A stretch of DNA of 64,000 nt from assembly GCA_947503785.1 (NCBI GenBank), contig CANNFB010000014.1, forward strand, positions 1 to 64,000. Direction: 5' to 3'. Positions within the stretch are counted from its first letter, which is position 1, and each line of letters opens with the position of its first letter. Below are positions 34,469 to 39,650 of this stretch, in pieces. The translations under genes were made by a program, and so were the position numbers. The stretch is from an uncultured Campylobacterales bacterium. GTDB lineage: Bacteria > Campylobacterota > Campylobacteria > Campylobacterales > Arcobacteraceae. Under the pieces are notes generated by a model. The model was given only the letters and a program-made list of their open reading frames with translations. It was not told where the DNA came from and ran no database searches.

Positions 34469-37871
<3,403 letters not shown>

Positions 37872-38039
37872 TTTATCTCCTATTTTTTTATTTAAAGTAG
37901 TGGTAGTAGTAGAGCATGTGAAAAGATGAAAACACTTCTTCGCAAACGAATGAGTCGAAACTCTTTCATGTGACTAAACGAAATGAAATATTCACACCTT
38001 TTCACATAATCTCTTTAAACTTTTTTAAGTTTAATACTT
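37872..38039. other. Candidate oriC2: DnaA boxes, DnaA-trio and AT-rich unwinding region
   Basis: The dnaA-dnaN gap holds three TTCAC-core boxes: 37916-37924 (complement TTTTCACAT), 37989-37997 (TATTCACAC) and 37999-38007 (TTTTCACAT). Directly left of the first box, 37898-37912 reads as five triplets TAG TGG TAG TAG TAG, followed to the left by AT-rich DNA. Read away from the box this is 3'-GAT-5' repeated, the published DnaA-trio polarity. Origin unwinding is therefore expected here. Confidence 0.75.
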
Positions 38040-39356
38040 TTACCACTCCTTATTTATGATTTTATTCTTTAAATTTTCTATAATTAGTTTAAAATTTTCG
38101 TCTTTTTCAATTAGCTCATTTGCTTTTTTAATATTATGAGAAATTGAAGAGTGATCTTTCATTCCAACGAACTTTGCAATATCTGGCATAGAGTTATGTG
38201 TAAGCTCACGTGCAAGATATATAACAACTCTTCTAGCATTTGCTACTGTTGCAGTTCTTTTCTTAGATTTGATATCACTAGGTTTTATATTAAGCTCACT
38301 TGCAACAATATTTATTACATCTGGAAGTTTAATATTTTCTTTTGTTTCTTTTATTTGATCTTTTAATAAACCTTGAACCATTTCAAGATTTATTTCTTGG
38401 TTTAATAGCGATGCAGAGGCATTAATTCTAATTAAAACACCTTCTATTTCTCTAATAGAATTATCCAAGTTTGTAGCAATAAAATTTATAATCTCTCTAC
38501 TTAATGAAATACCATTTAACTCAGATTTCTTTTCTATAATTGCAATTTTAGTTTCAAGTCCAGGAAGTTGAATATCAGCTGTTAAACCCCATTCAAACCT
38601 TGATTTTAATCTATCTACTAATCCTGCAATTTGAGAAGGTAGTCTATCTGATGTCATTACAATTTGTTTTTTTGCATTGTGTAATTCATTGAAAGTATGG
38701 AAAAATTCTTCTTGTGTTTGTTCTTTTCCAGATAAAAATTGAATATCATCTATCAATAGAACGTCACATTTACGGTACTTTGACCTAAAATGTTCCATAT
38801 TTTTATTTTTAATTGAGAAAGTAAAATCATTCATAAACTGCTCTATTGTTACATAAATTACAGTTTGACCTTTTTCAATTGCTGCATTTCCAACTGCTTG
38901 AAGTAAATGTGTTTTTCCTAAACCAGTTCCACCATAAATAAATAAGGGATTGTATTGAATACCTGGTTTATTCGATACTGCTAATGATGCGTTGTAGGCC
39001 ATTTGATTTGATGAACCTACAATAAATGAATCAAAAGTATATGATGGATTTAGTATCGTACTTTCAGCAGTTTTATTTTCTATACGTTCTTTTATGATTT
39101 CTTTTTTTGATTTCTTCTCGCCAGCGATTTTTATTTCAATAGTAGGCTTAGTTCCATCATATATTTCAAAACAATGTTGAATAACATCTGTATATTTACT
39201 CTTAATCCAAGAGGCTATATATTTATTTCCAACTTCAAAAATTGCAATATTATCGTCAGATGATATTTTTTTGTATACAAGCTGCTTTAAGTATCTGTTG
39301 TAATCAGCAGAACTAGCTTCTTTTTGAATAATTGATAAAAACTCTTTGTTTGTCAT
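38040..39356 (-). CDS. dnaA: Chromosomal replication initiator protein DnaA
   Basis: The protein has 438 residues. Domain I (about 1-75) is followed by a short linker, the AAA+ domain with Walker A GGTGLGKTHLL, Walker B LLIDDIQFL and sensor motifs (about 110-330), and a C-terminal DNA-binding domain with the signature around GMKDHSSISHNIKKA. It binds DnaA boxes and opens oriC. Box clusters lie on both sides of the gene. The start ATG at 39356 is followed upstream by 282 non-coding bases up to ruvC. Confidence 0.97.
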   Translation of the reverse strand: MTNKEFLSIIQKEASSADYNRYLKQLVYKKISSDDNIAIFEVGNKYIASWIKSKYTDVIQHCFEIYDGTKPTIEIKIAGEKKSKKEIIKERIENKTAESTILNPSYTFDSFIVGSSNQMAYNASLAVSNKPGIQYNPLFIYGGTGLGKTHLLQAVGNAAIEKGQTVIYVTIEQFMNDFTFSIKNKNMEHFRSKYRKCDVLLIDDIQFLSGKEQTQEEFFHTFNELHNAKKQIVMTSDRLPSQIAGLVDRLKSRFEWGLTADIQLPGLETKIAIIEKKSELNGISLSREIINFIATNLDNSIREIEGVLIRINASASLLNQEINLEMVQGLLKDQIKETKENIKLPDVINIVASELNIKPSDIKSKKRTATVANARRVVIYLARELTHNSMPDIAKFVGMKDHSSISHNIKKANELIEKDENFKLIIENLKNKIINKEW

Positions 39357-39479: not shown

Positions 39480-39650
39480 TTTTACAAACTTTGATAGTTT
39501 TCATCGAAATGAAATGTTGTACACATAGTGAATAACCCGTGAATAACTTGTGTTGATTAAGTGAAAATTTATGTAAATAATACCATTATACGGGCTTAAG
39601 ATTATGTGAATAGAAAAATGAACAAAAAGAGTAAATAAGTGAAAATACTA
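39480..39650. other. Candidate oriC1: DnaA box cluster upstream of dnaA
   Basis: Five TTCAC-core boxes occur on the minus strand within about 120 bases: 39527-39535, 39538-39546, 39560-39568, 39605-39613 and 39638-39646 (complements TTATTCACT, TTATTCACG, ATTTTCACT, CTATTCACA, ATTTTCACT). The last overlaps the ruvC start. AT-rich DNA lies at 39361-39450 toward dnaA. With the cluster beyond dnaA this gives the bipartite origin layout known from Campylobacterota. Confidence 0.7.

What the first reader, a model, noticed from the sequence alone, without database searches (positions are those of the whole stretch)
37898..38007. DnaA-trio next to DnaA boxes in the dnaA-dnaN gap
Five triplets (TAG TGG TAG TAG TAG) directly adjoin a TTCAC-core DnaA box, with AT-rich DNA on the far side. 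Read away from the box the strand is 3'-GAT-5' repeated, the polarity described for the DnaA-trio that loads DnaA onto single-stranded DNA. This pinpoints the probable unwinding site to about 37870-37915.
Basis: partly seen in the sequence, partly recalled or inferred. Interest (0 to 1): 0.75.

Follow-up and report, generated by a model that had tools for sequence, protein, structure and literature searches.

The report
DnaA-trio at an Arcobacteraceae replication origin
This is the place where the bacterium opens its chromosome to start copying it: a short row of TAG triplets beside a DnaA binding site, kept in nearly every relative examined and already described for a related species, so the element is ordinary, although the order of strong and weak binding sites beside it differs from the textbook case.

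Summary
On the + strand, TAG TGG TAG TAG TAG (37898-37912) stands 4 bp (AGCA, so not quite 'directly') from a DnaA box whose complement is CTTTTCACA (37917-37925), with AT-rich DNA beyond, in the dnaA-dnaN gap. The window is from Poseidonibacter or a very close relative (Arcobacteraceae). The reading as a DnaA-trio is well supported. In 98 Arcobacteraceae gaps the box-proximal triplet is TAG in 98, the second in 88, the fifth in 89; the spacer is 4 bp in 89. The A and G that Bacillus DnaA captures are the fixed letters; the uncaptured T varies in triplets 2-3. DnaA keeps the trio-reading residues except Ile190 (Thr here). Similar arrays stand beside dnaA across the order (80 of 98 gaps outside the family). 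A 2016 paper on Arcobacter butzleri mapped DnaA-dependent unwinding to this gap and named a DnaA-trio, so this is a new member of a known kind. Two less-known points: in Arcobacteraceae the consensus-like box is trio-proximal and the overlapping distal box weak, the reverse of Bacillus and of most other families here; and triplet 4 often has a central G. No unwinding was measured here.

The parts
37898..37912 (+). DnaA-trio array, 5'-TAG TGG TAG TAG TAG-3' (trio 5 to trio 1; trio 1 is next to the box)
   Evidence: Sequence; trio 1 TAG in 98/98, trio 2 in 88/98, trio 5 in 89/98 family gaps; A and G columns near invariant
37913..37916 (+). 4-bp spacer AGCA between trio 1 and the box; length kept (4 in 89/98, 5 in 8/98), letters mostly free
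37917..37925 (-). Trio-proximal DnaA box (box 1), CTTTTCACA, oriented towards the unwinding region
   Evidence: Fits HTWTTCACW (PMC5043019); TGTGAAAAG or TGTGAATAG in 88/98 relatives
37925..37933 (-). Second, weak tandem box (box 2), GTTTTCATC, overlapping box 1 by 1 bp
   Evidence: GATGAAAAT or GATGAAAAC in 83/98 family gaps; consensus core broken at one position; binding not shown
37872..37897 (.). AT-rich part of the probable DNA-unwinding element; includes the dnaN ribosome-binding site
   Evidence: Least stable 26-bp stretch of the gap by nearest-neighbour energy; about 5% of the window is as unstable; unwinding inferred
37988..37996 (+). DnaA box 3, ATATTCACA, opposite orientation
   Evidence: Consensus scan; conserved in alignment
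37998..38006 (+). DnaA box 4, CTTTTCACA, opposite orientation
   Evidence: Consensus scan; conserved in alignment
38040..39356 (-). dnaA, 438 aa
   Evidence: TIGR00362 497 bits, above cut-off
36801..37871 (-). dnaN, 356 aa
   Evidence: TIGR00663 262 bits, above cut-off
39527..39646 (-). Four consensus DnaA boxes upstream of dnaA (39527, 39560, 39605, 39638), the probable oriC1 of a bipartite origin
   Evidence: Consensus scan: 4 of the window's 18 boxes, the densest 600 bp; bipartite layout reported for A. butzleri (PMC5043019)

Best explanation
This is oriC2 of the chromosome: a basal unwinding system of the type described in Bacillus subtilis. DnaA binds the double-stranded box at 37917-37925, helped by a weak overlapping partner box at 37925-37933. 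From there an oligomer extends leftward on the + strand over the triplets, each protomer pair capturing the G and A of one 5'-NAG-3' triplet as single-stranded DNA. This opens 37898-37912, and the AT-rich 37872-37897 follows, giving room for helicase loading. Boxes 3 and 4 at 37988-38006 and the four boxes upstream of dnaA presumably complete a bipartite orisome. Shown here: sequence, geometry, conservation, conserved DnaA residues. Shown by others in relatives: unwinding of this gap by A. butzleri DnaA in vitro, and trio-dependent unwinding in H. pylori and B. subtilis. Inferred: that the same happens in this organism.
For: Sequence and position. Conservation in 98 family gaps: trio 1 98/98, trio 2 88/98, trio 5 89/98; spacer 4 bp in 89/98. 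The A and G columns of trios 1 and 2 are invariant while the T of trios 2 and 3 varies, which is the base-capture pattern of the B. subtilis cryo-EM structure (PMC10721633). The window DnaA keeps the equivalents of Asn187, Ile193, Arg202, Glu228 and Arg264, and across the family Asn, Glu and Arg264 are fixed and Arg202 is R in 97/98. The array exceeds the 99% level of shuffles in 97/98 family gaps and 80/98 others. A. butzleri unwinding mapped to this gap and a trio noted (PMC5043019). Trio disruption or reversal blocks unwinding in H. pylori (PMC8235120). Sampled GC-skew minimum of a closed congener lies next to dnaA.
Against: Triplet 4 has a central G, a base that slowed strand separation when placed in trio 1 of B. 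subtilis (PMC10721633). The Ile190 position, needed in B. subtilis, is Thr in 92 of 98 family members. The stronger-looking box is 4 bp from the trios instead of the usual 10-13 bp (PMC8287927). The skew minimum is broad. No experiment in this organism.
Confidence: 0.93

Rival explanations
1. The triplets are conserved as part of the dnaN leader or a promoter or regulator site (read CTACTACTACCACTA upstream of the dnaN ribosome-binding site), not as a DnaA-trio.
For: The array lies 26-29 bp from the dnaN start codon in most family members, and a dnaN transcript could include it.
Against: The spacing to the box is tighter (4 bp in 89/98) than to dnaN (18-34 bp in the family; 21 to 131 bp outside it). 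Conservation has a period of three with free T positions, as expected of base capture. Two species without dnaN next to dnaA still show TAG TAA CAG TAG TAG downstream of dnaA (L244, L245).
Confidence: 0.03
2. A chance run of TAG next to one of many TTCAC sequences in AT-rich DNA.
For: The bare pattern TAGTAGTAG-N0-12-GTGAA is not rarer in the genome than its reversed control.
Against: None of 5000 shuffles of the gap reach its score, and the arrangement is conserved family-wide while the neighbourhood drifts.
Confidence: 0.01
3. A refinement rather than a true rival: the trio is real, but in Arcobacteraceae loading starts differently from B. subtilis, because the strong box is the trio-proximal one and the weak overlapping box is an accessory or ATP-DnaA site like H. 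pylori ts1.
For: Core matches (box 1, box 2) are 5,4 or 5,3 in 90 of 97 family gaps, while other families mostly show 4,5 or 5,5. A. butzleri DMS footprints showed a single DUE-proximal box, not a pair (PMC5043019). The weak sequence is nevertheless conserved. H. pylori ts1 is weak and ATP-dependent (PMC8235120).
Against: Box strength is judged from the consensus only. Outside the family the picture is mixed: 23 of 80 gaps have two equal boxes and a few are strong-proximal.
Confidence: 0.5

Closest known systems
Arcobacter (Aliarcobacter) butzleri oriC2, Jaworski et al. 2016 (PMC5043019)
   Same: Same family, same dnaA-dnaN gap, same ruvC-dnaA-dnaN-gyrB order, same box consensus HTWTTCACW, DUE next to an inward-facing box, DnaA-trio reported, bipartite layout
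   Different: There unwinding and boxes were mapped in vitro; here only sequence evidence.
Bacillus subtilis basal unwinding system (boxes 6 and 7 plus DnaA-trios; Richardson 2016; PMC8287927, PMC10721633)
   Same: Tandem co-oriented boxes, 5'-TAG-3' triplets with the same polarity, AT-rich flank, DnaA residues that read the triplets mostly conserved
   Different: Here the consensus-like box is the trio-proximal one at 4 bp and the distal box is weak; box core is TTCAC; Ile190 equivalent is Thr
Helicobacter pylori oriC2 (ts1, ts2, DnaA-trio; PMC8235120)
   Same: Strong trio-proximal box, weak distal overlapping box, short spacer, trio next to AT-rich DUE
   Different: H. pylori dnaA is not next to dnaN; its spacer is GC-rich; ATP-dependence of the weak box has not been tested here
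Campylobacter jejuni oriC (PMC6052347)
   Same: dnaA-dnaN gap, twin boxes overlapping by 1 bp, about 5 bp to the DUE
   Different: Degenerate trio, the box off consensus is the proximal one, monopartite origin

Membership tests
DnaA-trio / basal unwinding system | At least three 3'-NAN-5' triplets in register within 16 bp of a DnaA box (search rule of PMC8287927) | tested here: met
   Trios 1, 2, 3 and 5 are 3'-GAT-5', 4 bp from box 1; trio 4 has central G
DnaA-trio / basal unwinding system | Polarity: 5'-TAG-3' strand with the box at its 3' side, AT-rich DNA on the far side | tested here: met
DnaA-trio / basal unwinding system | Conservation in relatives with fixed spacing to the box | tested here: met
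   98 family gaps, spacer 4 bp in 89; 80 of 98 gaps in other families above the 99% shuffle level
DnaA-trio / basal unwinding system | Tandem DnaA boxes with the trio-distal one closer to consensus (most frequent arrangement, not a requirement) | tested here: not met
   Order reversed here: box 1 core 5/5, box 2 core 4/5. Not defining: single-box modules are accepted in PMC8287927
DnaA-trio / basal unwinding system | DnaA residues for trio capture and oligomer (B. subtilis N187, I190, I193, R202, E228, R264) | tested here: met
   Five of six identical: N176, I182, R191, E217, R253; I190 is T179. The source paper says none of the capture residues is universally conserved
DnaA-trio / basal unwinding system | DnaA-dependent, trio-dependent strand separation | not testable with these tools
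   Shown for H. pylori and B. subtilis in the literature (PMC8235120, PMC8287927)
Epsilonproteobacterial bipartite oriC | ruvC-dnaA-dnaN order with TTCAC-core box clusters on both sides of dnaA | tested here: met
   Genes by NCBIfam; 3 + 4 of the window's 18 consensus boxes flank dnaA
Epsilonproteobacterial bipartite oriC | DnaA loops oriC1 to oriC2 | not testable with these tools
   Electron microscopy in PMC5043019 only for other species

The most novel reading that the evidence does not exclude
Arcobacteraceae use a rearranged unwinding module: the anchoring strong box stands next to the trios (4 bp), its overlapping partner is a conserved weak site, and the fourth triplet tolerates a central G while the fifth stays TAG, so the DnaA oligomer would start one protomer closer to the trios than in Bacillus and contact the triplets unevenly.
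Probability: 0.35. Interest if true: 0.45.

Novelty: new member of a known kind. Interest (0 to 1): 0.3.

Why it matters
It gives a clean, family-wide natural data set for the DnaA-trio. Nearly 100 origins vary the triplets while keeping their register, and the fixed and free letters agree with the base-capture structure solved for one distant species. The reversed order of strong and weak boxes and the recurrent central G in triplet 4 are natural variants on which the loading model can be tested directly with purified DnaA.

Tried and rejected
Genome-wide motif count as evidence: the bare pattern is no rarer than its reversed control, so it was not used. Window-scale GC skew: noisy, the contig minimum is at 74.3 kb, so 40 samples of a closed congener were used instead. 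Co-variation of one letter (W) between boxes 1 and 4: perfect in 73 of 73, but only 3-5 changes on the tree, too few to count as independent. Association of a His at the Arg202 position with G-poor trios in other families: visible in raw counts, not supported by independent pairs. No structure prediction was run, because a DnaA structure with trios exists (8btg).

Full report
What is there. The window carries gyrB, dnaN and dnaA on the - strand and ruvC divergently on the + strand. Between the dnaN start (37871) and the dnaA stop (38040) lie 168 bp. On the + strand, starting from dnaN, come an AT-rich stretch (37872-37897), TAG TGG TAG TAG TAG (37898-37912), AGCA, TGTGAAAAG (box 1, 37917-37925), an overlapping weak box GATGAAAAC (box 2, 37925-37933), about 55 variable bp, and two consensus boxes in the other orientation, ATATTCACA and CTTTTCACA (37988-38006). 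The nearest named DnaA proteins are Poseidonibacter lekithochrous and P. ostreae at 99% identity.

Chance. None of 5000 dinucleotide shuffles of the gap reached the combined score of trios and tandem boxes, and none of 100,000 produced four of five TAG next to GTGAA. The score was designed after seeing the element, so these numbers are a guide only. Genome-wide, a plain TAGTAGTAG close to GTGAA occurs once against three for the reversed control, so the bare motif is not remarkable; its place and conservation are.

Conservation. DnaA was sought in 104 genomes of the family and the dnaA-dnaN gap recovered for 98 loci. Nearly all gaps align end to end. Counting triplets from the box, triplet 1 is TAG in 98 of 98, triplet 2 in 88 (CAG 8, AAG 2), triplet 5 in 89, while triplet 3 is mostly AAG or TAG and triplet 4 mostly TGG (50), TAG, TAA or TAT. 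The spacer is 4 bp in 89 and 5 bp in 8. The single 1-bp spacer in that count and the two loci set aside are taken to be anchoring artefacts of my script; two of the three have an extra base inside the array. In 96 anchored gaps the A and G of triplets 1 and 2 are invariant, the first T is free in triplet 3 and partly in triplet 2, and conservation falls to background from about 19 bp after the start of box 1. In the B. subtilis complex the G and A of each trio are captured and the T faces away (PMC10721633); the fixed and free letters here fit that.

The wider order. The same search in families outside Arcobacteraceae gave 98 further gaps with dnaN; 80 exceed the 99% level of shuffles, with a spacer of 5 bp (40) or 4 bp (31). 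Tandem boxes overlapping by 1 bp are part of the pattern, as reported for C. jejuni (PMC6052347). Their order differs: within Arcobacteraceae the consensus-like box is trio-proximal (core matches 5,4 or 5,3 in 90 of 97), whereas elsewhere 4,5, 3,5 and 5,5 prevail (by family). The deep branch L098-L100 of the same family code keeps the other order (box 1 GTTGAATAT or ATTGAATAT, box 2 TGTGAATAA). Strength is inferred from consensus, not measured.

DnaA. Against the B. subtilis DnaA of the trio complex (8btg), the window protein has N176, I182, R191, E217 and R253 where B. subtilis has Asn187, Ile193, Arg202, Glu228 and Arg264; Ile190 is replaced by T179. In the family N, E and the Arg finger are fixed, Arg202 is R in 97 of 98, and position 190 is T in 92. 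Since I190A is defective in B. subtilis (PMC8287927, PMC10721633), the Thr is worth noting.

Location of the origin. The finding's suggestion to use GC skew was followed. In the window the skew is noisy. Forty samples of 20 kb from a closed congener, whose record starts at dnaA, give a cumulative minimum 20 kb before dnaA with a basin from roughly -120 to +80 kb, and the two half-chromosomes differ in mean skew (0.025 against -0.060, permutation p about 0.001, taking dnaA as the boundary). This is consistent with an origin at dnaA and does not pinpoint it.

Known work. Jaworski et al. 2016 (PMC5043019) mapped DnaA-dependent unwinding to the dnaA-dnaN gap of A. butzleri, Sulfurimonas denitrificans and Wolinella succinogenes, defined the TTCAC box core, and stated that all three have a DnaA-trio. 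Trio-dependence was shown later in H. pylori (PMC8235120; PMC8287927). No paper in the library pairs Poseidonibacter with oriC. So the element is a further member of a known kind. The family-wide column pattern, the reversed box order and the recurrent G in triplet 4 (at least 12 changes of the central letter on the DnaA tree) were not found described in the passages read; the supplementary figure on trio motifs in Epsilonproteobacteria (PMC8235120, Figure S8) could not be opened and may show part of this.

Verdict. Observation confirmed with a small correction (4 bp spacer). Interpretation supported. Ordinary in kind; modest interest for the natural variation it exposes.

Noticed in passing
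39527-39646: Four consensus DnaA boxes upstream of dnaA; the last one (39638-39646, AGTGAAAAT) contains the GTG taken as the ruvC start codon at 39639.
   Followed up: partly
37917-37925 and 37998-38006, with relatives L002-L100: The W position of box 1 and box 4 agrees in all 73 family gaps where both were read (CTTTTCACA with CTTTTCACA, CTATTCACA with CTATTCACA), but only 3-5 changes on the tree, so not proof of co-evolution.
   Followed up: yes
dnaA 38040-39356, residue T179: The residue matching B. subtilis Ile190, needed there for single-strand binding, is Thr in 92 of 98 Arcobacteraceae DnaA proteins and variable in other families.
   Followed up: partly
L215-L217 (family f9) and L250-L259 (family f14): Where the Arg202 equivalent, which contacts the trio guanine, is His, the box-proximal triplets are often TAA instead of TAG. 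Raw counts only; independent pairs do not support it.
   Followed up: partly
37969-37977: TGTGACTAA between the box pairs; relatives often have AGTGATTAA or TGTGAATAA here, perhaps one more weak DnaA site.
   Followed up: no
L091 and L096 (both genome G043): One genome (7% contamination estimate) holds two different dnaA-dnaN loci, DnaA 71% and 60% identical to the window; probably a mixed assembly.
   Followed up: no
L244 and L245 (family f12): dnaN is not next to dnaA, yet TAG TAA CAG TAG TAG followed by box-like sequence stands downstream of dnaA, as in H. pylori.
   Followed up: no
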